58,785 nucleotides of DNA, taken from assembly GCA_903908495.1 (NCBI GenBank), contig CAIVSK010000252.1:1-58785 (forward strand), in the 5' to 3' direction. The notes under the pieces were generated by a model, which did not search any database, was not told the origin of the DNA, and worked only from the letters and a program-made list of their open reading frames with translations. How positions within the stretch are numbered: the first letter of the stretch is position 1; each line of letters opens with the position of its first letter. The translations under genes and the position numbers were made by a program. This document shows positions 1-16,680 of this stretch, in pieces. This DNA comes from Akkermansiaceae bacterium (GTDB lineage Bacteria; Verrucomicrobiota; Verrucomicrobiia; Verrucomicrobiales; Akkermansiaceae).

Positions 1-2
1 AG

Positions 3-125
3 GCGCTGGTGACGGGCAATCCAAGCCGTGGCAAACATGCCTGGATCACCCACGAGGTTGCCAAAGGCGCATCTCTCGCCCCCCGCCCGCTGAGGGCAAC
101 CGCCCTGCCATGGGCCGCATTGTAG
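3..125 (+). other. possible C-terminal end of a gene entering from the left
   Basis: One plus-strand frame is open from base 3 to a TAG at 123-125 and reads ALVTGNPSRGKHAWITHEV followed by about 20 further residues. It has no start inside the window, so at most it is the tail of a gene whose body lies to the left. I recognise no family. The stop falls inside the palindromic element that starts near 117, which is where genes in this window tend to end. An open frame this short is also expected by chance in GC-rich DNA. Confidence 0.2.
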
Positions 126-198
126 CGGCGCTCTGTGAGCGCCGAGGCGCATGGGACCGCGCCTACCCAGCGACGGTCACAGACCGCCGCTACAATGC
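117..198. repeat. dispersed palindromic element, copy 1
   Basis: A perfect 14-bp inverted repeat (117-130 with 185-198) encloses further hairpins. The left arm folds as GGCGCT-CTGTG-AGCGCC (127-143), the centre as AGGCGC/GCGCCT (145-150 with 159-164), and the right arm as CGGT-CACAG-ACCG (174-186). It ends 18 bp beyond the stop codon of the beta-strand protein at 216. Related copies lie at 5705-5776 and 16558-16620. Arm sequences differ between copies while base pairing is kept. REP-like element, and probably the transcription terminator of the neighbouring gene. Confidence 0.75.
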
Positions 199-215
199 CA
201 GCGCGGACCACTGGC

Positions 216-3200
216 TCACGGGGTGGCGACGACCTTGAGACGGGCGAAAAGGCTGGACGCACCGTCGGGGGCGGGGATGGTGACGACGATGGTTTCGGTG
301 CTGCCGTGGTCCACCGGGCTGGCGAACATCTCCGGAGTGGCTGGCGTCCAAGTGCCGGTGAGGGATTGCGAATATTCGACGCCGGTGGCGTAGCCGGCAG
401 CGATGGCGGACTTGTCACGGGTGAAGGTGAAAATGACACCGTTGGGGCCCCGCACGGCGGTGGGCAAATTCGCTTGCGTCCCATCGGCGGGACTGGTACC
501 CAGCACGTATTCGATCAGATTGGGCAGCCCGTCCTGGTCGGGGTCGGCACCGGGCAACCGTTGGAGGGGATCGGTGATGGCGGTGAACCTTGCGATCCAC
601 GTTTCGTAGGGCGTGGCGTTGGCGGCCTGCAGCGTGACGAAATGCCCGGCTCCCCCGAGGGTATCGTTGTAATTGACCACAAAGCGGTTCACCCCGACGG
701 TGATGACGGCGCCGTCGGCGATGTCGGCGAAGGTGCCACTGAGGGTGGCTCCAGAGTGGTCGAGCAAGGTGAGCTTGGTGCCATTGGCGAGCGCCACAGG
801 GGTGGCCGCGTCATCGACGACCCTGAGAATGGCGGCGTTCAGATTGAGGGTGCCGCTGAGGGTGCAATTGCCGAGCACCGGCGTGCCCGCGCTGCTGTCG
901 AAGTGGGACGCAAGCACAGTGGTTGAGCTCATGGCGGCAGCGAAACCACCGCTGGTGATCAGGCTGCGCGAGGCGGCGGCGGCGGGCAGTGTCAGAGTGA
1001 CGCCCGATAGAGTTAGATCGGCACCGGCAAGGTTGCCGAGGGTGCCGGCGTTGAGATTGATGATTGCATTGGCGGCGGCCTGGCCGCTAACCGCAGTGGC
1101 AAGCAGCGTGGCCCCACTATTGAGATTGACGATGGCCGTTCCCATCGCGCCGCCGCTGTCCTGCACCATCGTCAGAGTTTCCACCTTGAGGGTGCCGCCG
1201 TTGGTGGTCAGCGTGCCGTTGGCGGTCTTGCTGTTGACCGTGGCGGCCGCGGCCATCACGACATTGATGGCATCAAGCGTGCCGGTGTTGAAGGCAATGC
1301 TGCCGGACGTCGCGTTGTTGAAGTTGCCGGCACCGGAGTCATGCTTGCCAATGATCACGGTGCCGAGCATGGCGTCGAGCGTGGTGCCCGCAGCGGTAAA
1401 ATCCACCGCGGCCGAGCCACCGGCATAGTCCGACGAGTTCTTGTAACCGACAGTCATGTTGGCCCGGCTGGAGCCGCCGCTGCTGCCGCGAATGCTCACC
1501 GCCGCGTCGGTGACGCCAGCGTCGATTTGCAGGGTCGAGACACCGGTTTGCGCGCCGTTGCTACCCACGCTGATCGAGTCCGCCTGGATGACATTGCTCA
1601 GGCCGAGATTGACGCTGGCGGTGGCACTACTGCCGTTGCCGGCAGGCCCGTTCAATCCGACCGAGAAAGTGGCGGCGGTGATGGTGTTGCTCAAGCTTGC
1701 CAGGACGGTCGTGGCGCTGCCTCCGCTGGTGACCACCGCCGTGCTGAAGCTGCCGGTGGCGTTGTTATAAACGAAGTGGTCGACGCCGGTGAGAGTGAGC
1801 CTGCCCTCGTTGACGAGAATGTTGCCCGCTCCGCCCACCGTCAGCGTCTTACCGGCGGCGGCCACCACCGTGGCCGCGGCAGCAGGCCCCTTGGTCAGCG
1901 AGCTGAGACTGAGATCCAGATCGGAAAAATCCAGGATGCCGTTGCCGGAGAACGTGAAGCCGGTGGCTGCGGGAAGCGTCGAACCGGCGCTGTCAAGCAA
2001 CAGGGTGCCGTTGCCGGCGACGACGGTGCCGCCGGTATAGCTGTTAACCCCGGTCAGGCGCAAGGTGCTGGTGCCCGCGTGGGTGACCACACCGCTGCCG
2101 GAGATATTTTTGGCGAAGGCCAAGTCGTCGGAGCGTTTGATGATCAGGTTGCCATTGTCAACAATGGCGGGGGCGACCACCGAGCCCAGCGTGCCTTCGC
2201 TGCCAAGTTGCAGGGTACCGCCGTTGATGGTGGTTGCTCCCGAGTAGGTCATATCGTTGTCGAGGATCAGGGTGCCGGGACCGCTTTGCACCAGGCTGCC
2301 GCTGCCGCTGATGTCCAGGCTGATGGTTTGCGAACCGCTGCGGTTGAACACGAGCCTGCCGTTGTTGACGATGGCCGAAGTGCTGCCGAGCGAGCCGGTG
2401 GCGGCGCCATTGCCGACCTGCAGGGTACCGGCGTTGATGGTGGTGACTCCGCTATAACTGTTATCGGCGGCGAGGATGGTGGTGCCGCCAACACCGGATT
2501 GGCTGAGGCTGCCGCTGCCGGAAATGGCGGCCAGGCTGAGAGTGTTGGAACGGTTGATGACGAGGCTGCCATCATTGACGATGGCACCGCTGCCGGGCGA
2601 ACCGGTGGTGCCGCCGGCGCCGGCTTGCAGCGTGCCGGCGGTGATGGTGGTGGTGCCGGTATAGCTGTTATCGGTGGCGAGAATCACTCTGCCGCTGCCA
2701 GACTTGGTCAGCGTGCCGCCACCACCGATGCCTCCGCTGCCGGTGATCGCATAGGTTTTCGTGCTGTTGTCAAAACTGACCGAGAGCGGCGTGACGGCGG
2801 CATTGAGGACGACGCTGGTGGTGGCGGCGCTATCGTCGAAGCTCGCACGGTCATTGATGGCAGCGGTGCTGGCAGTGGCACCGTTCAACCAGTTGGCGGT
2901 GGTGGCAAGGTCCCAGTTGCCGTCAACCGCGCCGCTCCAGGTGAGGCTGACGGCAGGAGGCAGCGAGAACGTGACGGTGATGGCGGAATTGCTACCCGTG
3001 CCGTAGTCCACGGTCTTGATGATGGGCGCGGTGCCAAAGCCCGAGAAATTGACGACCGGGGCACCGCTCAGACTGCCGGTGTAGGTGACGAGGGTATATG
3101 TGGACGGCAGCGACGGCAGTGCCGCGGCGGTCACTTCGATGCTGCCGCCGCTGTAGGCATAATCCCCGGTCACGGCCAGGCGGTCATTGGTTGAAGCCGT

Positions 3201-4358
3201 TAGATCCAGTTCAATGGCGCTGCTGCCCCCCTGCGTCAGGCCGGCCAAGGCGCTGGTCTGGATGTTGCCCACCCCGTTGCCGATGCGGACGCGGCCTGCG
3301 CCGGCGAGGGTCAGGGCGCTGCGGGCGATGCTGCCACCATAAAGGTTGAGACTGCCGGCAGTGACGCTGGTGGGACCGCTGTAGGTATTGGTGTTATATA
3401 GAGTCTCGGACTTGGTGGTATCCTTGAAGTTGATGCTGAGCCCCAGCCGGTTGGTGGCACCATCCGCGAGCACTCCGGCGAAGCTGCCGGCGTTTTCGAC
3501 CCGGCCGGTATTGGTGCCCAGCCCGACGGTCAGCACGCAATCGGTGCCACCGGCGTTGGTGACCACGCCCGCGATGGGACCCGTTAGAGAGGCGATCGTC
3601 TGATTCAAGCCATTGAGGTCGAGGGTGCCGGCGACTCCCGTGACGCCCGCCTGATACGAATATGACGTACTCCCGAGCAAGGTGGCAATGGTGCTGCTGC
3701 CGGTGAACTTGACGGTGGCACCGGCGGCGATGCCTGCGATGCCATTGACGGCGTTGCCGCCGCCGGAGTTGAAACCCAGCACGGTGATGCCCGCCTGGGC
3801 ATTGAGTGAAAGGTACTGCGAGATGCCATTGACCCCGGTTGCATCGCCGAGTTTGAGCGTTCCAGCGCCGGTTTTGTTCAAATTCCCGCCGGTGACCCCG
3901 CTCTTGGCACCGAAGCAGTTCTTGACGACGAGGGTGCCGCCGCTGCCGATGTTCCAAGTGGTGGCCGCCAACGGCATGGTACCGGAGTTGCTTTGGGCCG
4001 CGTTCTTGGCGATGTTGAGGGTGTAGCTGAACCCGTCGGTCACGCTCAGGGCCCCGACATACAGTTCGTTGACGGAGGCCGAGGTGATTTCCAGGTTCGC
4101 GCCATGGCTGAAGTTGAGACCAATACTGGTGCCGGTATCCTGATAGGATGCATTCAGCGTGATGGCCGTCGAGGCGGTGTTGGCGGTGAAATTGACCGTG
4201 TCGCCGGCGACCGGAACCACTGCCGTGCTCCAGTTGCCGGGAGTATTCCACGCATCGGTGGCCGCCCCGCGGCTCCAATTCGGCGACGCCGCATGGACGG
4301 TGGACGCGAACGCGATGAACTGGGTGGAAACGAGCAAGCGGAGGAATTTAGGTTTCAT
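216..4358 (-). CDS. secreted autotransporter-associated beta-strand repeat protein
   Basis: Predicted exported surface protein of 1,380 residues. It starts with a signal peptide (MKPKFLRLLVS..., cleavage likely after STVHA) and continues as Gly/Thr/Ser/Ala-rich beta-helix repeats of the PATR type (TIGR02601/PF12951), for example 'GGTLTKSGSGRVIL' followed by 'NSYTGTTTITAGTLQAG', which recurs several times in the middle third. There is no recognisable C-terminal autotransporter barrel. Instead the last ~130 residues carry 'DPDQDGLPNLIEYVLGT' and end in 'LFARLKVVATP', a tail shared with three other large proteins here. An upstream in-frame ATG at 4403 would add 15 residues before the signal peptide, so I take 4358. 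The regulator at 4520 is divergent. The exact role (adhesion, surface layer or polysaccharide binding) cannot be read from sequence. Confidence 0.85.
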   Translation of the reverse strand: MKPKFLRLLVSTQFIAFASTVHAASPNWSRGAATDAWNTPGNWSTAVVPVAGDTVNFTANTASTAITLNASYQDTGTSIGLNFSHGANLEITSASVNELYVGALSVTDGFSYTLNIAKNAAQSNSGTMPLAATTWNIGSGGTLVVKNCFGAKSGVTGGNLNKTGAGTLKLGDATGVNGISQYLSLNAQAGITVLGFNSGGGNAVNGIAGIAAGATVKFTGSSTIATLLGSTSYSYQAGVTGVAGTLDLNGLNQTIASLTGPIAGVVTNAGGTDCVLTVGLGTNTGRVENAGSFAGVLADGATNRLGLSINFKDTTKSETLYNTNTYSGPTSVTAGSLNLYGGSIARSALTLAGAGRVRIGNGVGNIQTSALAGLTQGGSSAIELDLTASTNDRLAVTGDYAYSGGSIEVTAAALPSLPSTYTLVTYTGSLSGAPVVNFSGFGTAPIIKTVDYGTGSNSAITVTFSLPPAVSLTWSGAVDGNWDLATTANWLNGATASTAAINDRASFDDSAATTSVVLNAAVTPLSVSFDNSTKTYAITGSGGIGGGGTLTKSGSGRVILATDNSYTGTTTITAGTLQAGAGGTTGSPGSGAIVNDGSLVINRSNTLSLAAISGSGSLSQSGVGGTTILAADNSYSGVTTINAGTLQVGNGAATGSLGSTSAIVNNGRLVFNRSGSQTISLDISGSGSLVQSGPGTLILDNDMTYSGATTINGGTLQLGSEGTLGSVVAPAIVDNGNLIIKRSDDLAFAKNISGSGVVTHAGTSTLRLTGVNSYTGGTVVAGNGTLLLDSAGSTLPAATGFTFSGNGILDFSDLDLSLSSLTKGPAAAATVVAAAGKTLTVGGAGNILVNEGRLTLTGVDHFVYNNATGSFSTAVVTSGGSATTVLASLSNTITAATFSVGLNGPAGNGSSATASVNLGLSNVIQADSISVGSNGAQTGVSTLQIDAGVTDAAVSIRGSSGGSSRANMTVGYKNSSDYAGGSAAVDFTAAGTTLDAMLGTVIIGKHDSGAGNFNNATSGSIAFNTGTLDAINVVMAAAATVNSKTANGTLTTNGGTLKVETLTMVQDSGGAMGTAIVNLNSGATLLATAVSGQAAANAIINLNAGTLGNLAGADLTLSGVTLTLPAAAASRSLITSGGFAAAMSSTTVLASHFDSSAGTPVLGNCTLSGTLNLNAAILRVVDDAATPVALANGTKLTLLDHSGATLSGTFADIADGAVITVGVNRFVVNYNDTLGGAGHFVTLQAANATPYETWIARFTAITDPLQRLPGADPDQDGLPNLIEYVLGTSPADGTQANLPTAVRGPNGVIFTFTRDKSAIAAGYATGVEYSQSLTGTWTPATPEMFASPVDHGSTETIVVTIPAPDGASSLFARLKVVATP

Positions 4359-4519
4359 GAGCAAATCAGTTTGGAGGTCAACAATGCCAAGCGGCTGCAT
4401 CAACCACTAGGATGGCACCCGGCGCAAGCCAGCGTTTTTTAAACATTTGCCAAAAAGAATTGCGCAGATGCCGCAGTTTCGAATTGGCAAGCGGCCACCT
4501 TCGGGCGACAAGACCAGAC
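4359..4519. promoter_or_regulatory. divergent intergenic region with a spaced inverted repeat
   Basis: This 161-bp region separates the minus-strand beta-strand protein from the plus-strand regulator, so promoters in both directions are expected. It holds an AT-rich patch near 4435-4447 and a 7-bp inverted repeat, TTGCCAA (4447-4453) and TTGGCAA (4484-4490), with centres 37 bp apart. The repeats could be half-sites for the adjacent GntR/LacI-type regulator. I see no convincing -35/-10 pair. Confidence 0.3.
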
Positions 4520-5680
4520 GTGAAACGCATCATCAAAACCTGCGCGATGGATTTGGTGGTCGCCGCATTGCGGACGGAACTCGCCGCCGGACGCTGGGAC
4601 GTGCGCCTGCCCGGGACGCGGGTGCTGGCCCAGCATCTGGGGGCCAGCGCGCCCACGGTGGCAGCGGCGTTGGCGCGACTGGCCGCAGACGGATTGCTGC
4701 AGGGAGGCGGAGCGCGGCGGGCATACCGGGTGGTGGGCGGGCGTTGCGCGTTGCCAGACCCGCGTACCGCAGCCACACCCAAGCGCCTGCTGCTGCTCAC
4801 CCACGAGGACCTGGGACAGCTACCGGAACTTTCCCGCAGCCTGCTGGAACTACTGCGCGATCGGGCGGCAAGCAAAGGCTGGCTGGTGGACTCACAAGTG
4901 GTGGATTTCGTTCATGTGAAACACCTCCAGCGGTCATGGGACCAAAAAATCCGCGTGGATGCCGGCACCTCGATCATCGCGCTTTACGGCAGGCCGCCGC
5001 TGGCAGAATGGGCAATCCGCCGCCAGCTTCGGATATTTTTTCTCGGCGGCTCGCTCGACGGATTGCCGGTACCGATGGTGGCGGTGAAGTCCTCACAGAT
5101 GGCGGTGACCGCACTGGCCAAGCTAACCGCACAGGGCCACTGGCGCATCATCATTCCCCTGTGCGACCGCACCGAGTCGTTCAAAGTGGGAATGCGGCAA
5201 GCCACGCAAGCGGCGATCGAGGCGGCGGGCCACACCTACAGCCAGGCCTATCACAATCCGGAAAGTCCGTTTTTGAAGCCGGACGTGACGTGGCGGATTC
5301 TCGAGGCCGCCTTCGCCAAGACACCGCCGACGGCGATGGTGTTTCTGGATTGGCGGGAGTTGGTGACGGCCCAGTGTTTCCTGGCCCGGCTGGAGTTGAC
5401 GATTCCCGCGGACGTCTCGGTGATACTGCTCAGTACCTCAGTGGACGCGGAATGGTTCTATCCGCCACTGTCCTGCTTCCGGTTTCCGATCCGCCGCCTG
5501 CTCGCTACCACGCTGCGATGGCTGGAGGATGGAGCGGGAGATGCCCACCCCATCACCCTGCCCCACGACTTCGTCGAAGGTGCCACCATCGGCCCGGCAA
5601 GGACCTCCAGAGTCGACGATTCACCCGTTCTCATCCACGGCAAGCGGTCGACGATCAGCGCGCGGACGCAGTGCCCGTGA
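4520..5680 (+). CDS. GntR-type HTH / LacI-type ligand-binding transcriptional regulator
   Basis: Predicted cytoplasmic DNA-binding regulator. The first ~70 residues form a winged-helix GntR-like domain ('ALRTELAAGRWDVRLPGTRV' followed by 'LAQHLGASAPTVAAALARLA'). The rest (from 'KRLLLLTHEDL') resembles a LacI/periplasmic-binding-protein sugar sensor, including 'GMRQATQAAIEAAG' and a late 'MVFLDWRELVTAQCFLARL' segment. This GntR-plus-LacI layout (XylR/AraR style) usually controls carbohydrate genes. The frame is open back to 4412, but the upstream 36 residues do not look like protein and GTG at 4520 ('VKRIIKTCAMDLVVAALR') starts just before the HTH. It lies between two beta-strand surface proteins and near a secreted glycoside hydrolase, which makes these its likely targets (inference). 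Confidence 0.8.
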   Translation: MKRIIKTCAMDLVVAALRTELAAGRWDVRLPGTRVLAQHLGASAPTVAAALARLAADGLLQGGGARRAYRVVGGRCALPDPRTAATPKRLLLLTHEDLGQLPELSRSLLELLRDRAASKGWLVDSQVVDFVHVKHLQRSWDQKIRVDAGTSIIALYGRPPLAEWAIRRQLRIFFLGGSLDGLPVPMVAVKSSQMAVTALAKLTAQGHWRIIIPLCDRTESFKVGMRQATQAAIEAAGHTYSQAYHNPESPFLKPDVTWRILEAAFAKTPPTAMVFLDWRELVTAQCFLARLELTIPADVSVILLSTSVDAEWFYPPLSCFRFPIRRLLATTLRWLEDGAGDAHPITLPHDFVEGATIGPARTSRVDDSPVLIHGKRSTISARTQCP

Positions 5681-5704
5681 GCGCCGCTGCCGATGGGACC
5701 GCGC

Positions 5705-5776
5705 TTGTAGCGGCGCCCTGTGAGCGTCGCTGCCCATGGGTCCGAGCTGCCCGGCGACGGTGGCAAACCGCCGCTA
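5705..5776. repeat. dispersed palindromic element, copy 2
   Basis: Outer arms TAGCGGCG (5708-5715) and CGCCGCTA (5769-5776) enclose a left hairpin whose stem (5711-5716 with 5724-5729) is kept by a G-U wobble, and a right hairpin CGGT-GGCAA-ACCG (5758-5770). As in copy 1, it ends about 17 bp beyond the stop codon of a beta-strand protein (5794). It fills the convergent gap between the regulator and that protein and may serve as a bidirectional terminator. Confidence 0.7.
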
Positions 5777-5793
5777 CTATCCTTGCAACTGGC

Positions 5794-8700
5794 TCACGGG
5801 GTGCCGACGACTTTGAGGCGGGCGAATTTCATCACGGCACCATTTCTGGGAATCGTTACCGTGACGGTGTCCGGGGTGGAATCGCCGTCATTGCTGATGA
5901 CCACGGCGGGCGAGGTGGAACCCGCGGTGTCGGCACCGATGACAAAGACTTCCGGCCAGCTGTTCAAATCCGTGCCGGCTTCCACGGTCAGGATGATTCC
6001 CGAGTCGGCGGCCTTCGCACGGTCGTCGCGCTCAAAACGGAACACGAGGTTGTCGCCCTCGCTCGTCGCGGTGGGCAGTTGCGTGGTGTTAGGCAACGCC
6101 GGATTGCCGCCCTTGAGGACAAACTCCAGCCCATTGGCCACCCCGTCGTGATCAGGATCCTGGTTGATGCCGGTCTGACCGCCGAGGGCGAAGCCCGCGA
6201 TCCATCCGGCATAACCGGGGACCTTGCTGAGCACGACCTGGCTGCCGATGTTAGTCACGGCATAGCCGCCCGGTGCGCTGAGCGTGCCGGTCAAGGTGCC
6301 GCTGCATTCGGCGATGACATAAGAGGCCGCAGTGAAACCCGCACCTGATTCGCTGACCGTGATGGCGCCGCCGACGCTCAGATCGCCGGTGACCGCAAGC
6401 TTGTCCGCGGTGGCATTGACCTCGATGGCGAGGATGCCGCTAAGACTGGTATTCCCGTTGACCGTGAGGGTGCCGACGCCCACCCCCGGGGCGATGGTGC
6501 CTGCCGCGGTGAGCGGCGCGGCCACGGTGCCATTGCCCTTGAGGGTGGCACCAGCCGCCACCGCGACCGAGGAACCGCCCATTGAAGCGGCAGCGTCGAT
6601 AATGAGGGTGCCGTTGTTGACCGTCGTCGCGCCACTGTGGGTGGCGGTGCCGGTGTAGGTCAGGATCTGGGTGGTGGTATCGCCAAAGCCGTTCGCCAGC
6701 GGAATGCCGACCCGCAGCGCGCCCGTGCCGGAAATGGCATTGGTCACGGTGTGCGCGTCGGTCCGCGAGAACGTCAGCGTGCCGTTGTCAACCACCGTCG
6801 CCGTGCCGAGTGAACCGAAGGCATCGGCACCGGATTGGGTCACGTCCGTGTTGCCCGGCACACCTCCCACGCGGACCGGCACGCCGGCGGCAATGGTCAG
6901 AGTGCCACTCAAGGTGTTGGTGCCCGTCAGGATGAAGCCGCGGTCGATGTTTTGCATTCCCAGCGCCGGATCCTCGAAGGATAGGGCACCGGAGCCGGAG
7001 ATCACTCCTTGGATTTTGAGCGTGCGGGGGCTGTTCAACGAGCGGTTGAGAATTTTGTTAGCCGAACCCACCAAGCTGATGTTATTCGTCCATGTCCAGT
7101 TGCCTTCAATCTGCGAGAGGATGCCGCTGGTGGTGGCGTCGCCGAGAATCACGCTGCCGGAGCCCATGGCGGTGGCACCGTTGCGGATCGTGCGGAATTC
7201 GCTCCCGCCCTTGACCGTTAGATTGCCGGACAGGCCGGCCCAGGATCCGCTTTCGCCGAAGCCGACGCCGGTGCCGGGGTAGTTGAACAGGACGGCACCA
7301 CCATCGAGCACCACATCCCCCGCACCACCCACCTTGCGCAGTCGAGGGTTGGTCTTATAGTCAAGCAAGTCGCTGCGATTGATGCGCAGGGTGGCTCCGG
7401 CTAACAAACTCACCGGGCCCGGGCCGACTTCACCGATGGTGGCGCCATCGCCGAAGGTGAGCGTACCCTCGTCGATGAAAGTGGTACCGGTGTAGCTCGT
7501 CGCGGAGGTGATGGTTGCGGTGCCGGATCCCTGCTTGGTGAGATTGCTGGTGCCGCCGAGGGTGCCGCCGCTGAGCGTGTAGGCCAGCGTGCTGTTACTG
7601 ATCGTAACGGCAGCCGCAGCCTGGGTGCCGACCAGAACCACGTTGCCGGTCGTGGCGGTGTCGTCAAAGACCGCCTCATCGCCGGTCAGGAAATGGGTCG
7701 GGCTCCCGCCGAGATCCCAGTTGGCCGTGGTGTCAAGATCCCATTGGCTAGACACATTGCCTTTCCAAGTGACGGCACCGCCGGTGTAGGTCAGGTCAAT
7801 GGTGGTATCGACCAGATTGTTTGACAGAGTGAAGCGTGACCCCGGTGCGAGCGAGAGATTGGCATAACCGCCGCCGCCCAGCGTGCCGGAGTAGTCGATG
7901 ATCGGCACCTTGTCGCCGGGCACCAGGCCGCCGTTAGAAACTGCGGTGATGACGTGAGGGCCATTGATGACGAGCCCACCGGCGTCATTGACCACCAGTT
8001 GGTCGAAGGCGATGCCCGCGCGGAAAGTCGACCCGGAGCCGCTGGCGAGGGTGAGTGATTTGACGAATCCGGTGCCGGCTGCAGACTGGCTGCCAGCGCC
8101 GATGGCGCCGCCGCTCTGCACCGTCACGTCGCTGCTGTCGAGGTGATTGCCGATGCGCAAGACCCCCTGATTGACGGTGGTGGCACCGGTGTAATTGCTG
8201 GCACCGGTCAGGGCGACGAGTCCGAGGCCTTGCTTGGTGAGGGTACCGGCACCGCTGATGACGTTGGCGAGGCCGACGTTGGCGGCGGCACCATAATTGA
8301 GCACGAGCGCGGTGTTATTGGTTACCGTGCCGGTGCCCATGTTGCCGGTAGTGCCACCATTGCCAACCTGCAGAGTGCCCGCGTTGATGGTGGTGGCACC
8401 GGTGTAGGTGTTGGTGCCGGCGAGCACCATCGTTCCCGCGCCGAGTTTATTGATGCCGCCCGCCAGGCCGCCGGCGGTCCCCTGGGAACCGAGAATCATG
8501 CTGACGATCAAATCAGGATCGCTGTTGGCGGTTACGTCGGCCACGTCGAAGTTTTGCACCCCTGCCAAATGGATGCCAGTGGCACCGTTCATCGTGGAAA
8601 CTCCCGTCCCGCTTACTGTCACCGTCGCCGGGCCCGCAGTGGTATCAGAAAGCAACGCATCATAACTGTTCAGCGCCCGGTTGCAGGTCCAGGTAGCCCC

Positions 8701-11238
8701 GTTCACCAGCGATACATTGCCGAAGCGGGCCTCAAAGTTGCTATTCATCAACAGTGTGCCGCCATTGACCGTGAGCACCCGACTGGCGGCCATCGCCGTC
8801 CCGTGACCGGATACAAACACATTGGTGTAGCCGACTTCGAGCGTGGCACCGGTGCCCACATTGAAGCCCGCTGAATTAAGCAAGGTGCTGGTGACCACCA
8901 GTCTGCCGGTGTCGGACACACTGGTGGCGCCTGAGTAACTGTTAGCGGCGCTGAAGGTCAGGGTGCCGGCACCGGATTTCAGCACGGAACCGATACCGCT
9001 GATGGCACCCGAGTAGGTCGAGGCGTCACTGCGGTTGAAGACCAGGGCACCGGCATTGGCCACATTGCCAATGGTGCCCGCAGCGCTCCCGGCACCGATT
9101 TGGAGAGTGGCCCCCGCGGCAATCGTGGCGGCAATGGGGTTGGTTCCTGCAAGAATCAAAGTGCCCCCGGCAGTGGCATAACTCAGGGAGGAACCCGTAA
9201 CATTGCCGCCGATGCCACCGGTGCCGGTGATGGCACCACCACCGAGAACCACCGCGTTGCCAATCAACTGGCCGTTCATGGCAAGCGTGCCGGCGTTCAG
9301 CGCGACGCTGCCCGAGCCCAGAGCGGTGGCCGAGCCCAGAGTGATGGTGCCGCCGCCAAGTGTGGCACCGCCGGCGAAGCTGTTAGCGGTGTTGATGGTT
9401 AGGCCCCCTGCGCCGGTCTTGAAAAGTGAACCGCTTGTGATGCCGTGGGATCCCTGGATCGTGTAGCTCTGGGCGGCGTTGCTGAACAGCATGCTCGCCG
9501 GAGCCACGTCGGCGACGCTGAGATCAAGCGTGGTGGTGATGGCGCTGTCATCAAACATCACTACATCTCCCGCAAGATAGTCGGTCGCGGTGCTACTGCC
9601 TTGGAGTTTCCAGTTGCTGGAACCCCCGATGACGTTGGTGCTCCACTCGCTGCTTTGGGCACCACTCCAGATCGGGCTGGCACCCGCCACCACCCAGTTG
9701 AGGGCGCTGCCGGTGTCCACCAGTGCCTGCGACTGACGACCGCCGACGGTCGGTTTGGTGCCGAGCACAAAGGCCGACGCGCCCGTGCCGCCAATGCTGC
9801 CGCCGGTGTAGCTCAGAAGTGGATAGGTGCCGCTGACTGCGCTCGCGCCACCCAGATTGATGGTCACCACGCCGCTGGTTATTAGTGCGCCAGCCGCGAT
9901 GGCCGGGGCCGTGGTGTAGCCGGTGTAAGCGCCCAGCGTGATCGTGCTGGTGCCGGAGAAAGCCAGATTGCCGGTGGTCAATTTGCCTGCGCCAGCCGTA
10001 CCCGGAGCTAACAAGCCGCCGGATGCCACTGTGGTCGCGCCGACCGTGCCGGTGCCGCCGAGAGTTGCCGTGCTGGCGACTGACACCGCGCTGCCCGATA
10101 GACTGCCGGTGACCGCGAGCGTGCCGGCATTGATCGAGGTCCCGCCAGTGTAGGTATTGGTGCCTGAGAGCGTCAGCGTGCCGCTGCCGATCTTGGTGAC
10201 GGCGCCGCCGCTGCCGGAAATCGCCCCGGCGTAGGCGGCGGGGCTGGTGTTAGAGGCACCGATCGTCAGGGTGTTTGCGCCGAGGGCAATATTGCCGCCG
10301 GTCGCTCCGCCGCCGGTCAACGAACCGATCTGGGTATTGAAGCCGGTGATATCGAGGCCGGCGCCCGCCACATTCGCCAGGGTCACTGCCGAGTTATTGC
10401 CCAAGGCGCCATTGACCCCTGCGGTGGAAGCCACGCCCGCCTTCAAGGTACCGGCGCTGATGGTGGTGGCACCGGTGAAGGTGTTTGCGCCGGCGAGGGT
10501 GACTGTGCCGGTGCCCTGCTTGATCATCTGCGCACCCCCGGAGATCACCCCAGTGGACTTCATATTGGCATTGCCGGTGCAATAGACGCTGTAGCGCGAA
10601 TTGATGTTGTTAGTCGCCACCAAGTAGTCGTAGCTGGCGTCTGTCGCGTAGTTGAAAACCACTTGGTTGATGGCCCCGGTGCCATCGCCGAGGGCACCGG
10701 TGCCCGCCACGGAGTTGATGATTCGATCGGGACTGGGGCCGGTGATCGTCCCCAATGCCACCGTGCCACCGGCAGTGGTGCCACCGAATTGGATGATGTT
10801 GCTCGCGTTATTGGCGAGGGCGTTGGTCACCCCGGTCCGGTCAGCCATGCGCATGGCACCGGAGTAGCCCTGCATGTTGCCAGCGAACACAAAGTCCTGC
10901 GCGAGGCCAGCGGTAATCAGGACGACGTTACCCGCACCTGTCACGGTGCCGGTGAAGTTTGTCACGGACGCCCCATTGCCGTTGTTCATCAACAAGCTGG
11001 TGATGAGGACGTTGGCATTGCTGTAGGTGATGGTTGCCGCGCTGACGGTGAAATACCCGGAGGTGGTGTTGAAAATGAGCGGATTGGCCGCGGCCACGTT
11101 GGCATCAGTGGGCATCATCGCGGTTTGGGCACCGACGTAGCCGGTCGTCGCGTTGTACGTCGCCGCCGATGCGGTGTGAGTGAGAGCGGTGAGGGCGAGC
11201 AGTGAGGCGACCGCGAACAGATTGGATTTGCGTTTCAT
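5794..11238 (-). CDS. giant autotransporter-associated beta-strand repeat protein
   Basis: Predicted exported surface protein of 1,814 residues with a clear signal peptide (MKRKSNLFAVASLLALTALT..., cleavage near HTASA). Most of the chain is a beta-helix of PATR repeats such as 'TKIGSGTLTLSGTNTYTGGT' and 'INAGTLQVGNGGTTGN', at least eight by eye. As in the paralogue at 216-4358 there is no outer-membrane barrel. The C-terminus has 'DPDHDGVANGLEFVLKGGNP' and ends 'MKFARLKVVGTP'. The last ~35 coding bases and the stop context are nearly identical to those of the paralogue, which suggests duplication or gene conversion of the 3' end. It is convergent with the regulator and divergent from the glycoside hydrolase. 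Confidence 0.85.
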   Translation of the reverse strand: MKRKSNLFAVASLLALTALTHTASAATYNATTGYVGAQTAMMPTDANVAAANPLIFNTTSGYFTVSAATITYSNANVLITSLLMNNGNGASVTNFTGTVTGAGNVVLITAGLAQDFVFAGNMQGYSGAMRMADRTGVTNALANNASNIIQFGGTTAGGTVALGTITGPSPDRIINSVAGTGALGDGTGAINQVVFNYATDASYDYLVATNNINSRYSVYCTGNANMKSTGVISGGAQMIKQGTGTVTLAGANTFTGATTISAGTLKAGVASTAGVNGALGNNSAVTLANVAGAGLDITGFNTQIGSLTGGGATGGNIALGANTLTIGASNTSPAAYAGAISGSGGAVTKIGSGTLTLSGTNTYTGGTSINAGTLAVTGSLSGSAVSVASTATLGGTGTVGATTVASGGLLAPGTAGAGKLTTGNLAFSGTSTITLGAYTGYTTAPAIAAGALITSGVVTINLGGASAVSGTYPLLSYTGGSIGGTGASAFVLGTKPTVGGRQSQALVDTGSALNWVVAGASPIWSGAQSSEWSTNVIGGSSNWKLQGSSTATDYLAGDVVMFDDSAITTTLDLSVADVAPASMLFSNAAQSYTIQGSHGITSGSLFKTGAGGLTINTANSFAGGATLGGGTITLGSATALGSGSVALNAGTLAMNGQLIGNAVVLGGGAITGTGGIGGNVTGSSLSYATAGGTLILAGTNPIAATIAAGATLQIGAGSAAGTIGNVANAGALVFNRSDASTYSGAISGIGSVLKSGAGTLTFSAANSYSGATSVSDTGRLVVTSTLLNSAGFNVGTGATLEVGYTNVFVSGHGTAMAASRVLTVNGGTLLMNSNFEARFGNVSLVNGATWTCNRALNSYDALLSDTTAGPATVTVSGTGVSTMNGATGIHLAGVQNFDVADVTANSDPDLIVSMILGSQGTAGGLAGGINKLGAGTMVLAGTNTYTGATTINAGTLQVGNGGTTGNMGTGTVTNNTALVLNYGAAANVGLANVISGAGTLTKQGLGLVALTGASNYTGATTVNQGVLRIGNHLDSSDVTVQSGGAIGAGSQSAAGTGFVKSLTLASGSGSTFRAGIAFDQLVVNDAGGLVINGPHVITAVSNGGLVPGDKVPIIDYSGTLGGGGYANLSLAPGSRFTLSNNLVDTTIDLTYTGGAVTWKGNVSSQWDLDTTANWDLGGSPTHFLTGDEAVFDDTATTGNVVLVGTQAAAAVTISNSTLAYTLSGGTLGGTSNLTKQGSGTATITSATSYTGTTFIDEGTLTFGDGATIGEVGPGPVSLLAGATLRINRSDLLDYKTNPRLRKVGGAGDVVLDGGAVLFNYPGTGVGFGESGSWAGLSGNLTVKGGSEFRTIRNGATAMGSGSVILGDATTSGILSQIEGNWTWTNNISLVGSANKILNRSLNSPRTLKIQGVISGSGALSFEDPALGMQNIDRGFILTGTNTLSGTLTIAAGVPVRVGGVPGNTDVTQSGADAFGSLGTATVVDNGTLTFSRTDAHTVTNAISGTGALRVGIPLANGFGDTTTQILTYTGTATHSGATTVNNGTLIIDAAASMGGSSVAVAAGATLKGNGTVAAPLTAAGTIAPGVGVGTLTVNGNTSLSGILAIEVNATADKLAVTGDLSVGGAITVSESGAGFTAASYVIAECSGTLTGTLSAPGGYAVTNIGSQVVLSKVPGYAGWIAGFALGGQTGINQDPDHDGVANGLEFVLKGGNPALPNTTQLPTATSEGDNLVFRFERDDRAKAADSGIILTVEAGTDLNSWPEVFVIGADTAGSTSPAVVISNDGDSTPDTVTVTIPRNGAVMKFARLKVVGTP

Positions 11239-11426: not shown

Positions 11427-14234
11427 ATGACACGTCAACCCCACTGCCGGTTTCTCGCGCTCGGCTTGCTCGGCCTCGGTTTGCCTGTCGCGGCCATGGC
11501 TGCGGACGAAGCGCAACCCGGCAATCCAACCGTCAGCCTGTCGGCGGATGGCGTGGCCCTTGCCTGCGGCAGCATGGGAACCTTCACCCTGGCCTATCCT
11601 CAACTCGATTTGGGCGACGACAAGAAACACGAACCGGTTGAGAAGCGCGTGCAGGGTGCCTCCGCCACGCTGACCTATGCAGGCGGCGGCAGCATCGTGG
11701 TGGCGGCCGCAGCCGGCAAGATCTCACTGACCTTCGAGGCCATGCCCGCCGCGACCAAGGCGTTCACCGCGGAGATGTTGATAGCACCCAACTACAGCGA
11801 TGGCGGGCGCTGGAGCGTCGGCGATGCCGCCGGAGCGTTTCCCAAGGACAAGCCGGCGAAACCCCACCTCTTCCAAGGCCACTCGCGCTCGTTCGATCTG
11901 GCTAATATCAACAACAAGCGCCTCAGCTTCGCGCTGCCGGAATTCACCTACGTGCAGATTCAGGACAACCGCGAATGGGGGTGGAACACGTTCTGGGTCC
12001 AATTCAAAGTCCCCTTCGCTCCCGAGCGCAAAACCTGTGAGATAGGCATCGCCTTGGACGCCAGCGCGGCCCAACGCGTCGTGTTGGTCGACCGCTTCGG
12101 CCAAACCACCCAGCGCGATTTTGCCGGCAAGCTCAAGGCGGAATCAGACCTGAAATCCGATACCGCAAGCGAAGCAGCCTACTACGCCAGCCTCACCCCG
12201 CCGGTGCGTAACACCTACGGCGGGCTGCCCGGCAGTGGAACCCAGTTGGGATTGAAAAAGACCGGGTTTTTCCACGTCGAAGCGAAACCGAGCGGCGCGG
12301 GTGAGCGCTGGATACTCACAGACCCGGCCGGAGACGCCTATTTTCACCTCGGCGTGTGCTCGTTTGGTCCGGGCGAGGACTACACATCCATCGAGGGCCG
12401 CAGCGAGGTCTTCGAGTGGCTGCCGCCGCATAGCGACGCCCAGGCCGCCGCCTGGCACACGGACTCGTGGTGGAACCCGCGCGCCGTGTCGTTCTACAAG
12501 GCCAACGTGATCCGCAAGTACGGTGCCTACGACGAGGCAGCCCACCTCGGCCGCCTTGTCGACCGCGTGCGGCAGGTCGGCTTCAACTCGGTGGGAGCGT
12601 TCTCGGCCGACTCTCCGGTGTTTGCGGCGAAGGGATTTCCGCGGGTCGGATTCCTGCCGCTCAATGCGTGGACTCTCGGCGCACCGGTGCCCGGCGTGCG
12701 GGGTGTCTTCGACCCGTTCGACGCGGCGAACCTCGCCAAAATGGACAGCTTGTTCGCCAAGGAAATCGCCGCGAGCGCCGCCGACCCGTTGCTCATCGGC
12801 TACTTCCTCGACAACGAGCAAGCCTTCGAGGACATCCCCCGCGCCGTCCCGGCCCTGCCCGGCAAACACGCCTGCAAGCGCGAACTCGTCGCCCTGCTGC
12901 AGGCCAAGTACCAGCAAATTGCCGCCTTCAACACCGCCTGGGGCTGCGACGCCGCCTCGTTCGAGGCCCTCGCCGAGCGCGGCCTGGCGCTGACCACGCC
13001 GGCGGCTTTCGCCGACATGCAAGTGTTCACCGAGCGCTTCCTGGAAGCGTACTATATGTCCATCGCCACCACTTTCCACAAGTACGACAAGAACCACATG
13101 CTCATCGGCAACCGCTGGCAGCCCGGCACCGCCAACAGCGAGGTGCTGTGCCGCGTGGCCGGCAAGTACCTCGACGTCATCAGCATCAACTACTACGCCT
13201 GCGCCATCGACGCCGCCTTCATCAAACGCCTCTACCAATGGAGCGGCCACAAGCCACAGCTATGGAGCGAGTTCTATTTCACTGCCACCAAGGAAAGCAA
13301 CGTCGCCGCTAACAACAGCGACATGGCCACCCAGCGCGAGCGCGGCCTGGCCTACCGCAACTACGTCGAGGGGGCCGCAGCCCTCGGCTTTGTCGTCGGC
13401 ATCGAATGGTTCACCCTGCTGGACCAGGCGGTCAGCGGCCGCTTCTTCGAGGGCATCAATGGCGAGCGCGCCAACACCGGCCTCTTCAACGTGGCCGACC
13501 GACCTTACCGCGACCTGTTCGCCGAAATGGCCAAAACCCACAGCGCCATCTACGACGTGTGGCTCAACGGCAAGCCGCCCTATCGGCTAGACAGCCCGCG
13601 CTTCAACGGCGCGGCGGGCGGCGCCACACGCAGCATTGCGGCCGGGCGGCCGACCGGGCCGATGGTCATCGACGGCCTGCTGTCCGGCTGGCCGGGCCGC
13701 CCGCCCGAGCGCATCGGTGCCGAGCGGCTGGTCATTGGCCGCGACAGCGGTGGGGTGGAAGCCGCCTTCAAAGTTTGCTGGGACGACACCCACCTCTATC
13801 TGCTAGCAAACGTCACCGACCCCACGCCCATGAAAAACGAGCACTCCGGCGAGCAACTCTGGAACGGCGACGCCATCGAGCTTTTCATCGGCAGCGAGAA
13901 AATCGACCAGGGCGGCAGCTGGCTTTTCACCGACCACCAGGTATTGCTCGGGGCCGGCAAGAACCACCAGACCCACGTCGTCAACGCGGCCACGCAACCT
14001 GTGATAGGCACCTCGGTGACCCCCGCCGTGGACGGCAAGGGATACACGCTGGAGGCGGCCATCCCGTGGGCCGCGCTCAACGTCACGCCGCATGCCGGCC
14101 AGACGCTGCTCTTCGACCTCGCGCTCGGCAACAGCACCGACGGCACGAGCCGCTCCAGCCAACTCGTCTGGAATGGCGGCGCGCGCAACTCGTCGGACCG
14201 CAGTGCCTGGGGCCGCCTCACTCTGGTGCCGTAA
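11427..14234 (+). CDS. secreted glycoside hydrolase (clan GH-A-like) with C-terminal CBM9-like domain
   Basis: Predicted exported polysaccharide hydrolase of 935 residues. The start is set at the ATG opening a signal peptide (MTRQPHCRFLALGLL..., cleavage near PVAAMA). After ~250 residues of beta-rich N-terminal domain comes a TIM-barrel region beginning 'LKKTGFFHVEAKPSGAGERW' with 'FHLGVCSFGPGEDY', resembling beta-agarase and GH42/GH50-like enzymes. Candidate catalytic acids are E464 in 'GYFLDNEQAF' and E615 in 'QLWSEFYF'. The last ~190 residues ('DDTHLYLLANVTD', 'WNGDAIELFIG') match a CBM9-like carbohydrate-binding domain. The substrate cannot be fixed; agar-like or other galactans are possible. 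It probably works with the nearby surface proteins and regulator (inference). Confidence 0.8.
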   Translation: MTRQPHCRFLALGLLGLGLPVAAMAADEAQPGNPTVSLSADGVALACGSMGTFTLAYPQLDLGDDKKHEPVEKRVQGASATLTYAGGGSIVVAAAAGKISLTFEAMPAATKAFTAEMLIAPNYSDGGRWSVGDAAGAFPKDKPAKPHLFQGHSRSFDLANINNKRLSFALPEFTYVQIQDNREWGWNTFWVQFKVPFAPERKTCEIGIALDASAAQRVVLVDRFGQTTQRDFAGKLKAESDLKSDTASEAAYYASLTPPVRNTYGGLPGSGTQLGLKKTGFFHVEAKPSGAGERWILTDPAGDAYFHLGVCSFGPGEDYTSIEGRSEVFEWLPPHSDAQAAAWHTDSWWNPRAVSFYKANVIRKYGAYDEAAHLGRLVDRVRQVGFNSVGAFSADSPVFAAKGFPRVGFLPLNAWTLGAPVPGVRGVFDPFDAANLAKMDSLFAKEIAASAADPLLIGYFLDNEQAFEDIPRAVPALPGKHACKRELVALLQAKYQQIAAFNTAWGCDAASFEALAERGLALTTPAAFADMQVFTERFLEAYYMSIATTFHKYDKNHMLIGNRWQPGTANSEVLCRVAGKYLDVISINYYACAIDAAFIKRLYQWSGHKPQLWSEFYFTATKESNVAANNSDMATQRERGLAYRNYVEGAAALGFVVGIEWFTLLDQAVSGRFFEGINGERANTGLFNVADRPYRDLFAEMAKTHSAIYDVWLNGKPPYRLDSPRFNGAAGGATRSIAAGRPTGPMVIDGLLSGWPGRPPERIGAERLVIGRDSGGVEAAFKVCWDDTHLYLLANVTDPTPMKNEHSGEQLWNGDAIELFIGSEKIDQGGSWLFTDHQVLLGAGKNHQTHVVNAATQPVIGTSVTPAVDGKGYTLEAAIPWAALNVTPHAGQTLLFDLALGNSTDGTSRSSQLVWNGGARNSSDRSAWGRLTLVP

Positions 14235-14252
14235 CCGGCGTGCCGTTGCGGC

Positions 14253-15353
14253 TCAGCCGTTGAGTTTCGCGAGTGTCTTGGGCAGGAAGATGCCGTCCTT
14301 GCGGATGAGTTTGCCGTCGAAACGGATCTCGCCGCCGCCGTAGTCCTTGCGCTGGATGTTGACCATGTCCCAGTGGACTTGCGAGCGGTTGCCGTTATCG
14401 GCGTCCTCGTAGGCCTGACCCGGGGTGAAGTGGAACGAGCCGGCGATTTTCTCATCAAACAGGATATCGCGCATCGGTTCGAGGATGAGCGGATGCACGC
14501 CCAGCGCGAATTCACCGATGTAGCGCGCGCCCTCATCGGTATCGAGAATCTTATTGAGCGCCTGGGTCTTGGAACCCGCCTCCGCCTTGACCACCCTGCC
14601 TTTGGAGAATTCCAACCGGATGCCGTCAAATGCGATGCCTTGATAGATCGTCGGCGCGTTATGGGTGACATAGCCCTCGACCGAATCGCGGACCGGGGCG
14701 GTGAACACCTCGCCATCCGGCACGTTGAAACAGCCACCGCAGACGATGGCAGGAATGTCCTTGATGGAAAACTTCAGGTCGGTGCCCGGTCCGGTGATTT
14801 CCACCCGGTCGGTCTTGTCCATGAGTTTGCGCAGCGCGTTCATCGCCGGTATCAACGCCTTGTAATCTAGCAAGCACACCTTGAAATAGAAATCTTCGAA
14901 TGCTTCGGTGCTCATGCCGGCTTGTTGGGCCATCGAGGGGCTCGGCCAGCGCAGCACACTCCACTTGGTTTTCTTCACCCGGTAATCCAGCACCGGCCGC
15001 AGATGCTTCATTGCGAGCTGCATGCGTTCCGCCGGCACGTCGGAGGTTTCCGCGATGTTGGTGCCGCCGCGAATGGCGATGTAGGCATCCATGTCCCGCA
15101 TTTCCGCCAGCAGGTGCTTGCTCATGATGGCATATTGCCCGTCCTCCGCGCCTTTCAACAACTCGCGGGTGAGCCGAGCCTGATGGACCCGCACAAACGG
15201 CAGTGCGCCCTTGGCCCGCGCCGCGCGGATCAGCGCCAAACCCATGGCATCGGGTACGTCAAACAGATCGATGAGGACTTTCTCGCCTTTCTTCAGCGAG
15301 GTGGAATAACTGACCAATTGGCGGGCCAGCGCGTCGATGCGGGTGTCGTGCAT
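14253..15353 (-). CDS. aminopeptidase, M29 family (AmpS/PepS type)
   Basis: Cytoplasmic metalloaminopeptidase of 366 residues, slightly shorter than typical M29 enzymes (~370-410). The N-terminus '[20 protein letters not shown]' is typical of the family. Candidate metal-binding segments are '[20 protein letters not shown]', '[11 protein letters not shown]', '[11 protein letters not shown]' and 'SQVHWDMV'. M29 enzymes release N-terminal residues using two Zn, Co or Mn ions. It is convergent with the glycoside hydrolase (18 bp between stops) and divergent from the amidohydrolase at 15544. Confidence 0.88.
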
Positions 15354-15543
15354 GGCCCGAGCCTAGCCATGGCCGCAGCGGGTTCCAAGCCCGATCTGCA
15401 ATTTCTCGCTACGGGTTAGCCGCCGCCGGATTGACGGCGAGCGCAAGCCCGTTCAAATGAAAAACTCTAACACCTCCCCAGCCCGCCTGATCGAACGGTA
15501 TTGGGCGTCGACGACGGGCCGCCGGTATGCTAAGGATAGCCTC

Positions 15544-16530
15544 ATGCTAGAGGCCGCACCGCGCAAAATCGACTGTCACGTCCATCTCCTCGGCGACGGC
15601 AGTTCCGGCAGCGGTTGCTGGCTGCGGCTCAAATCCATTGCCCAGCGGCTGCAGGCGCAAGTCATGGTGCGCGCCGCCGGCATCCCCGCCGCAGCCCTCC
15701 GCGGCGGCCTCGATGTGCAGGTGGAAGCCAGCCTCGCCGGGTTGTTGGGCGGCTCGTCGCTGGACGCGGTGGTGTTGCTGGCGCAGGACATTCCGCACCG
15801 CGACGATGGCACGCCGCTGCCGGACAAGGGCGCGTTTTTCGTGCCGAACAACTATCTGCTGGAGGTGTGCGCGCGGCATCCCGGCCGGTTCATTCCGGCG
15901 GTGTCGATCCACCCGGCGCGGCACGACGCGCTGGAGGAACTCGAGCGCTGCCTGCAAGCAGGGGCACGGGTGCTCAAGTTGTTGCCCAATTGCCTCAACG
16001 TTGATTACGGGGCGCCGCAGCATCGCCCGTTCTGGGAGAAGATGGCCGCTGCCAACATGGTTCTGCTATCTCACACCGGAGGTGAATTCTCGTTGCCGGT
16101 GTTGTGCCGCCGCTTCGCCGATCCGCGGTTGCTGCGCTATCCGCTGGAGTGCGGCGTGACGGTCATCGCCGCCCATTGCGGCGGCCGTTCCGGACTGTGG
16201 GATCCGGATTACACGGCGATCCTGCTGGCCATGTTCGAGCGGTGGCCACGCCTGTTCGGCGACAACTCGGCGCTGTGCACCCCGCTGCGCTGCCGCACCC
16301 TGCCGCTAATCCTTCCCGATAATGTTAGAAGGAGGATCGTCCACGGCAGCGATTTCCCCATCCCCGTCAATGGCTTCGGCCCGTGGCGCATGGGGCTCAT
16401 CGACCGCGACATCTGGCGCCGGTCCAGCCAGCAACCCAACGTGTTGGAACGCGATGTGATGCTCAAGCGCGCCATCGGGTTCGACGAGGCCAACCTCACG
16501 CTGATGGATGAGTTGTTAGGACACCGATGA
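15544..16530 (+). CDS. amidohydrolase-2 family metal-dependent hydrolase
   Basis: A TIM-barrel metal-dependent hydrolase of 328 residues (PF04909 type). It shows the N-terminal HxH metal motif in 'KIDCHVHLLGDG' (H12, H14), 'LLSHTGGEFSL', 'VIAAHCGGRSGLWD', 'FGDNSAL' and the late 'HGSDFPIP' with D270. The frame is open upstream to an ATG at 15457, but AAGGA followed by a 7-base gap precedes the ATG at 15544 and the HxH motif normally lies near the N-terminus, so 15544 is preferred. The family hydrolyses or decarboxylates small carboxylates and aromatic acids; the substrate is unknown. Confidence 0.82.
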   Translation: MLEAAPRKIDCHVHLLGDGSSGSGCWLRLKSIAQRLQAQVMVRAAGIPAAALRGGLDVQVEASLAGLLGGSSLDAVVLLAQDIPHRDDGTPLPDKGAFFVPNNYLLEVCARHPGRFIPAVSIHPARHDALEELERCLQAGARVLKLLPNCLNVDYGAPQHRPFWEKMAAANMVLLSHTGGEFSLPVLCRRFADPRLLRYPLECGVTVIAAHCGGRSGLWDPDYTAILLAMFERWPRLFGDNSALCTPLRCRTLPLILPDNVRRRIVHGSDFPIPVNGFGPWRMGLIDRDIWRRSSQQPNVLERDVMLKRAIGFDEANLTLMDELLGHR

Positions 16531-16557
16531 GCTGGCGCAGTGTTTGGGACTCGCGCT

Positions 16558-16620
16558 GGCGGCGGCTGTGACCGTCGCAGGCTACAGCACGGCCTTGTAG
16601 CGGCGGTCTGTGACCGTCGC
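16558..16620. repeat. dispersed palindromic element, copy 3 (two direct half-units)
   Basis: Two related half-units run in the same direction. The first is GGCGGCTGTGACCGTCGC (about 16561-16578). The second begins TTGTAGCGGCG at 16595 and folds as CGGT-CTGTG-ACCG (16604-16616). The element sits in the convergent gap between the amidohydrolase and thioredoxin genes, so all three copies in the window are at gene 3' ends. The stem sequence here matches the right arms of copies 1 and 2, while the loop matches the left arms. Confidence 0.65.
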
Positions 16621-16680
16621 GGGCGAAAGATTAAGCATTCCATCGTCTCGCGACGCTCACACAGGGTGCAGCCGCCGAGC

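What the first reader, a model, noticed from the sequence alone, without database searches (positions are those of the whole stretch)
117..16620. Three-copy palindromic element with covarying hairpins, always at gene 3' ends
Copies at 117-198, 5705-5776 and 16558-16620 share a TGTAGCGGCG-type core but differ inside the small hairpins: GGCGCT/AGCGCC in one arm, CGGT/ACCG in others, and a wobble-rescued stem in copy 2. Pairing is kept while sequence changes, which points to selection on RNA or DNA structure. All three lie just after stop codons. It resembles REP/BIME elements but matches none I know.
Basis: seen in the sequence. Interest (0 to 1): 0.6.

Follow-up and report, generated by a model that had tools for sequence, protein, structure and literature searches.

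The report
REP palindromes of a Verrucomicrobia transposase family
The three palindromes belong to a roughly hundred-copy family of tiny non-coding mobile DNA repeats (REP elements) in a Verrucomicrobia genome, of a kind already described, and some relatives of the genome carry the transposase gene that goes with them.

Summary
The window copies are pairs of a 23-nt unit (GTAG tag, 8-bp stem, 3-nt loop) facing head to head. The unit has 101 matches in this genome at <=2 mismatches (reversed-pattern control 3). It fits the published GTAG-tagged REP/BIME superfamily, already reported in Verrucomicrobia.

Relatives carry the matching transposase: an IS200-like RAYT flanked by these units. Of 121 RAYT loci examined, 20 have the unit within 200 bp, and these cluster on the RAYT tree (2 label changes, shuffled mean 17.9). 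No cognate RAYT was found in the window's own genome (95.7% complete).

Here 19 of 21 cleanly typed head-to-head pairs join two different stem types. One stem position is mostly G.T on the GTAG strand, hence mismatched on the other strand, which favours selection on single-stranded DNA over RNA. Units favour convergent gaps and gene 3' ends, but not always: 11 of 74 clusters are divergent and 6 lie inside called genes. Copies 1 and 2 follow related genes, and copy 1 has a near-duplicate elsewhere, so they may not be independent insertions.

Verdict: a new member of a known kind.

The parts
119..196 (.). Copy 1: head-to-head REP heterodimer with outer inverted repeat ATTGTAGCGGCG/CGCCGCTACAAT and a 26-nt spacer that can itself pair (AGGCGC/GCGCCT)
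   Evidence: folds as ssDNA with z -6.43 (+) and -7.23 (-), 0 of 200 shuffles as stable
122..144 (+). REP unit, C-type stem, exact to pattern
171..193 (-). REP unit, G-type stem, exact to pattern
123..125 (+). TAG of the GTAG tag, in frame as the stop of the open frame from 3 (gene start beyond the contig edge)
   Evidence: that the frame is a gene is inferred
5704..5780 (.). Copy 2: head-to-head REP heterodimer between convergent genes
   Evidence: z -2.69 on +, -1.85 on -
5707..5729 (+). REP unit, C-type stem, with G.T pair and one C.A mismatch
5755..5777 (-). REP unit, G-type, eroded (3 mismatches)
16559..16577 (+). Eroded G-type unit without its tag, head-to-tail before copy 3
   Evidence: 19 matches in 20 aligned columns, one deletion; 0 of 2000 shuffles
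16597..16619 (+). Copy 3: intact G-type REP unit
16651..16664 (-). Probable eroded C-type head-to-head partner of copy 3 (core only)
   Evidence: 13 of 14 identical to C-type; 4 of 2000 shuffles reach the score; fold of 16594-16680 z -2.78
216..4403 (-). PATR-repeat protein whose 3' end faces copy 1
4412..5680 (+). GntR-type regulator with periplasmic-binding-like domain, 3' end faces copy 2
5794..11238 (-). PATR-repeat protein whose 3' end faces copy 2; C-terminus paralogous to that of 216-4403
15457..16530 (+). Amidohydrolase-family protein, 3' end faces copy 3
16681..17001 (-). Thioredoxin, 3' end faces copy 3

Best explanation
The elements are GTAG-tagged REP units, often in head-to-head pairs (BIMEs/REPINs): non-autonomous mobile DNA spread by a cognate IS200-like RAYT transposase that acts on the GTAG-carrying single strand. 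Shown here: the unit, its copy number, the pairing, the strand asymmetry, the position bias, and the RAYT flanked by the same units in relatives. Inferred from the studied E. coli, Stenotrophomonas and Marinomonas enzymes: that the RAYT binds the GTAG plus hairpin as ssDNA, cuts beside it and moves it. In the window's genome the units are probably leftovers of past mobility, because no cognate RAYT was found. They persist where insertion presumably costs little, with an excess between convergent genes and close behind stop codons.
For: Own genome: 101 matches at <=2 mismatches, reversed-pattern control 3. Census of the fetched stretches: 109 units at <=3 mismatches in 74 clusters; neighbours 26 HH, 2 TT, 7 HT; HH gaps 23-80 nt, 21 of 26 in 23-34. 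RAYT: G011 has a 151-aa RAYT with a unit on each side; NF047646 REP_Tyr_transpos 106.4 bits, cut-off 80; only PDB match 4er8, TnpArep, E 1.5e-10. Of 121 RAYT loci examined 20 have the unit at <=2 mismatches within 200 bp, including the first 17 of the score ranking. On a tree of 106 of these rows, 19 of them flanked, the label needs 2 changes, shuffled mean 17.8-17.9, 0 of 500 shuffles as low. Several other RAYTs have other recurring GTAG hairpins, such as GTAGGGACAAGC.. or GTAGGCCGAC... The 15 genomes with a flanked RAYT that were counted carry 6 to 300 copies at <=1 mismatch. Strand: pair 7/21 is standard in 77 of 85 units on the GTAG strand and 18 of 85 on the other. Single units between co-directional genes: GTAG strand on the coding strand in 6, opposite in 13. 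GTAG supplies the stop codon of a called gene at 6 units. Published: the E. coli enzyme binds ss REP but not its complement, and GTAG is crucial for its activity (PMC8266576, passages).
Against: No cognate RAYT in the window's genome: best match E 5.3e-5. Its 8 Y1_Tnp matches have no unit at <=4 mismatches in the flanks held, cut by contig ends in 4 of the 8. A RAYT of >=69% identity was found in only 3 of 61 genus genomes, while genomes such as G018 and G023 have 54 and 47 unit copies at <=1 mismatch. Elsewhere in the class some unit-rich genomes had no unit beside the RAYT loci that I examined: G146 (160 exact units; L393, L398) and G410 (27 at <=1 mismatch; L300). No empty site was shown: in none of 25 relative amidohydrolase loci does the thioredoxin follow it as in the window. 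The RAYT query was chosen because units flank it, so the association is partly selected. L345 ties in score with the 17th flanked row and lacks the unit. Copy 1 has a 93% identical near-duplicate on C189, next to a gene with a near-identical C-terminus, so some copies spread by gene duplication, not transposition.
Confidence: 0.9

Rival explanations
1. The elements are kept mainly as RNA structures at transcript 3' ends: bidirectional terminators or mRNA stabilisers for convergent gene pairs.
For: Convergent gaps are over-represented: 28 of 66 intergenic clusters against 13 of 99 unit-free gaps in the same stretches (Fisher P 3.6e-5); between co-directional genes 23 of 27 clusters lie nearer the upstream 3' end.
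Against: The G.T pair is paired only on the GTAG strand, and in a head-to-head dimer any transcript has one unit in the wrong sense. Single units between co-directional genes show no coding-strand preference (6 same, 13 opposite). 11 clusters lie between divergent genes and 6 inside called genes. No Rfam family matched at the gathering score. Counting gaps with at least one gene 3' end, clusters are not enriched: 55 of 66 against 77 of 99, P 0.43.
Confidence: 0.06
2. The copies spread mainly by duplication of neighbouring genes, not by their own mobility.
For: Copies 1 and 2 follow paralogous PATR genes, and the C189:26691 copy follows a near-identical gene end, with 93% identity to window 100-210.
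Against: Only 3 of 83 genes ending within 200 bp of a cluster carry that C-terminus; the exact unit form occurs in 70 of 384 genomes of the class.
Confidence: 0.03
3. Chance G+C-rich palindromes or an assembly artefact.
For: The genome is a draft in 432 contigs, and copy 1 begins at base 119 of its contig.
Against: 101 matches against 3 for the control; 0 control matches in every row of the class listing; 3 of 74 clusters lie within 500 bp of a contig end, about 5 expected.
Confidence: 0.01

Closest known systems
GTAG-tagged REP superfamily (Di Nocera, De Gregorio and Rocco 2013, PMC3733652; abstract, sections 5, 14, 15, 16 and passages seen; figures not held)
   Same: Unpaired GTAG tag (GTGG variants), 6-13 bp stem with complementary changes and G.T pairs, often short loop, head-to-head dimers mostly 20-100 bp apart, heterodimers, placement near gene 3' ends with TAG used as stop codon, RAYT genes flanked by the repeat. 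Reported in Opitutus terrae (Verrucomicrobia).
   Different: Consensus strings of the 24 families are in a figure that is not held, so identity to an O. terrae family could not be checked; GTAG-17 and GTAG-19 dimers there have 1-2 bp spacers, unlike the 23-34 nt usual here.
E. coli REP/BIME with TnpAREP (RAYT) (PMC8266576, passages seen)
   Same: Tag plus hairpin, paired units of differing type, IS200-like transposase related in sequence (4er8).
   Different: Stem is 8 bp without the AA-GC bulge of E. coli REPs; a single G.T pair, in most units, sits at stem position 3.
REPINs (Bertels and Rainey 2011, PMC3116915; search listing with start of abstract only)
   Same: REP doublets as a mobile unit (recalled), many copies per genome.
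   Different: In the window's genome the doublets mostly join two stem types; no population analysis was done here.

Membership tests
GTAG-tagged REP | Unpaired GTAG (or GTGG) next to a short G+C-rich hairpin | tested here: met
   109 units at <=3 mismatches; third tag base A in 76, G in 31. The scan pattern itself asks for this shape; the reversed-pattern control gave 3 against 101
GTAG-tagged REP | High copy number, mostly outside genes | tested here: met
   101 matches; 66 of 72 non-edge clusters intergenic against 12.9% of random points (genes called with my own simple caller)
GTAG-tagged REP | Pairing kept through complementary changes | tested here: met
   Pair 10/18, left open by the pattern: G-C 59, C-G 39, other 11 of 109; 52.4 Watson-Crick expected if independent; T-A and A-T forms in relatives G014 and G015
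GTAG-tagged REP | Same repeat flanks a RAYT gene (REPtron) | tested here: met
   20 of 121 RAYT loci in relatives; not found in the window's own genome
BIME (paired REPs) | REPs in alternating orientation at regular spacing | tested here: met
   26 HH, 2 TT, 7 HT neighbours; 21 of 26 HH gaps are 23-34 nt; 45 of 74 clusters are single units
RAYT / TnpAREP | HUH and Y motifs of IS200-like transposase, RAYT family model | tested here: met
   NF047646 106.4 bits over cut-off 80; DHLH, WQ and YVRENP read by eye in the G011 protein, compared with the motif table of PMC6006769 (passages)
Opitutus terrae GTAG-17, -19 or -20 | Published consensus sequence | not testable with these tools
   Consensus is in a figure that is not held
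Active mobile element | Insertion polymorphism at orthologous sites | tested here: inconclusive
   Gene order beside copy 3 not kept in the 25 relative loci examined

The most novel reading that the evidence does not exclude
In this genus the head-to-head heterodimer is the true mobile unit, with two different ends: the RAYT needs one C-type and one G-type hairpin, each marked on its active strand by the G.T pair. The units stay abundant long after the genome loses its own RAYT, by being moved in trans or kept for the host.
Probability: 0.2. Interest if true: 0.5.

Novelty: new member of a known kind. Interest (0 to 1): 0.28.

Why it matters
It gives one REP family, with its RAYT branch, in 33 of 171 sampled genera of the class, so that REP-RAYT matching, persistence of REPs without a visible transposase, and the preference for heterodimers that Di Nocera et al. 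call unexplained could be tested outside the Proteobacteria. The window copies themselves are ordinary.

Tried and rejected
Rfam: no match at the gathering score in the window. With the lax threshold on 1-17000 the best of 6 matches is mir-274 over copy 1 itself (31.9 bits, gathering score 56, E 0.0028), taken as a chance palindrome. No covariance model was built; pattern scans and pair counts were used instead. NF047646 in the own genome gave 10 matches, none over the cut-off. One search used a RAYT query in the wrong frame by my mistake; its rows are not used, and repeats it correctly. L192 has units near a Y1 transposase, but by eye that protein is an ordinary IS200 TnpA, so it was not counted.

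A first score ranking suggested perfect separation (15 of 58 flanked, all at the top). Adding 60 more places broke it: 20 of 121 flanked, L345 unflanked among flanked ones, and two low-scoring copies, L354 and L386, flanked. Rows dropped: L254 and L137 as the same places as L258 and L260; 7 of 58 rows too short for the first tree; 15 of 121 left out of the wider tree for length or score. The loci are the best of each genome only, and of the places listed only the 30 given as loci and the 60 fetched were examined.

The empty-site test failed for lack of synteny: no thioredoxin follows the amidohydrolase in the 25 relative loci; L331 and L332 have a weak thioredoxin-like match far upstream, and L341 has a 1-mismatch unit about 240 bases past the gene end. 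A text search for GTAGCGGCG gave 110 papers; none of the 20 listed looks to be on REPs by title. Searches for such a family in Verrucomicrobia in print were made; of what they listed, only PMC3733652 bears on it as far as I saw. PMC2817692 and PMC8049555 were seen in passages only.
Full report
What is there. The window is contig C252 of a draft genome of 6,185,372 bases in 432 contigs. The three palindromes are made of one 23-nt unit: GTAG, stem CGGCGNNC, loop TGT, stem GANCGNCG. Copy 1 is two exact units facing each other (122-144 +, 171-193 -). Copy 2 is one exact and one eroded unit (5707-5729 +, 5755-5777 -). Copy 3 is one exact unit (16597-16619 +) with an eroded unit before it (16559-16577 +) and a probable eroded opposite partner after it (core 16651-16664 -). 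The window holds 5 matches at <=3 mismatches, 0.11 expected.

Genome-wide. There are 101 matches at <=2 mismatches, against 3 for the pattern read backwards (100 of the 101 places were listed by my count). I fetched stretches around the listed places; with the window and the stretches around the RAYT-like genes they make 285,375 bases in 77 stretches. In these I counted 109 units at <=3 mismatches (third tag base A or G allowed) in 74 clusters: 45 single, 25 double, 3 triple, one of five. Neighbours are 26 head-to-head, 2 tail-to-tail and 7 head-to-tail. Units come in two main stem types that differ by a flip of one base pair (10/18): G-C in 59, C-G in 39, neither in 11. Of the 21 head-to-head pairs with both units of clean type, 19 are mixed, 2 are G-G, none C-C (P 7.6e-5 against random pairing). 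In other families of the class many of the listed pairs are of equal type (capped lists), so the mixed rule is not universal.

Which strand. Stem pair 7/21 is G.T in 59 and G-C in 18 of 85 units at <=1 mismatch, so it pairs in 77 of 85 on the GTAG strand and in 18 of 85 on the other; pair 11/17 leans the other way (67 against 77); over the eight pairs the totals are 635 and 588 of 680. In a head-to-head dimer every transcript carries one unit in the wrong sense. Single units between co-directional genes lie with GTAG on the coding strand in 6 and opposite in 13. This favours selection for a single-stranded DNA substrate over RNA. It fits the studied enzymes, which process the REP strand but not its complement (PMC8266576, passages seen). 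The two bases before the tag are TT in 63 and CT in 28 of 109 units; the E. coli enzyme cuts at CT, so this is compatible but no proof.

Position. With a simple gene caller of my own, trained on the window, clusters fall 28 convergent, 27 co-directional, 11 divergent, 6 inside called genes and 2 at edges. Unit-free gaps in the same stretches are 13 convergent, 64 co-directional and 22 divergent. Convergent gaps are enriched (P 3.6e-5 by gaps, 6e-4 by bases). 'Next to at least one gene 3' end' is not (55 of 66 against 77 of 99, P 0.43). Between co-directional genes 23 of 27 clusters are nearer the upstream 3' end. At 6 units the TAG of GTAG is the stop codon of a called gene, and perhaps also at window 123-125. 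Copies 1 and 2 follow PATR-repeat paralogs. The C189:26691 copy, 93% identical to window 100-210, follows a gene with a near-identical C-terminus, so these copies may have been duplicated with the genes.

The transposase. The own genome has 8 Y1_Tnp matches; none has the unit at <=4 mismatches in the flanks held, which are cut by contig ends in 4 of 8. Among relatives, 20 of 36 other members of the genus have the unit at <=1 mismatch, and 0 of 22 genomes of other genera of the order (control 1 match each in G023 and G045). In G011 a 151-aa RAYT lies between two exact units. It scores 106.4 bits on NF047646 (cut-off 80), and its only PDB match is TnpArep 4er8. Its near relatives in G032 (77% identical) and G076 (69%) are flanked by the same family, G032 by a 2-mismatch form. 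Several more distant RAYTs of the genus are flanked by other recurring GTAG hairpins; for others no such hairpin was found. Across the class, 76 of 384 genomes have a RAYT match at E <= 1e-20. Of the 121 RAYT loci I examined, 20 have the unit at <=2 mismatches within 200 bp, among them the first 17 of the score ranking (the 17th ties with unflanked L345). On a quick tree of 106 rows the label changes twice; the shuffled mean is 17.8-17.9 and 0 of 500 shuffles are as low (many forks unresolved). A smaller careful tree of 51 rows gives 2 changes against 13.3. The exact unit form occurs in 70 of 384 class genomes and 33 of 171 genera, with control 0 in every row listed.

Reading. This is a GTAG REP family with its own RAYT branch; the mechanism is taken from studied RAYTs, not shown here. 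The window's genome has many units and no visible cognate RAYT, as do several other genomes: only 3 of 61 genus members have a close one, and unit-rich G146 and G410 had none beside the RAYT loci examined. Loss after spread, movement in trans, or gaps in draft genomes would each explain it. The family is a new member of a known kind; whether it equals a numbered O. terrae family could not be checked.

Noticed in passing
window 216-4403 and 5794-11238, minus strand: Two large PATR-repeat (autotransporter-passenger-like) proteins with paralogous C-termini ending FARLKVVATP / FARLKVVGTP; a third gene with this C-terminus lies on C189 next to a near-copy of the copy 1 dimer.
   Followed up: partly
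L009-L016 (own genome): Eight Y1_Tnp matches, seven in open frames of 339-398 aa, longer than the 151-aa RAYT, without this REP nearby; what they act on is unknown.
   Followed up: no
L262-L266, L269, L275: Other RAYTs of the same genus are flanked by GTAGGG-type hairpins, different from this REP family.
   Followed up: partly
L111 3492-3905; L260 1132-2277: Clusters of the same unit in relatives: five exact units in one direction in L111, and arrays on both sides of the RAYT in L260.
   Followed up: no
L260 (G076): Genome G076 (12.6 Mb, 580 contigs, contamination listed as 6) carries 300 units at <=1 mismatch; at that size it may be a mixed bin.
   Followed up: no
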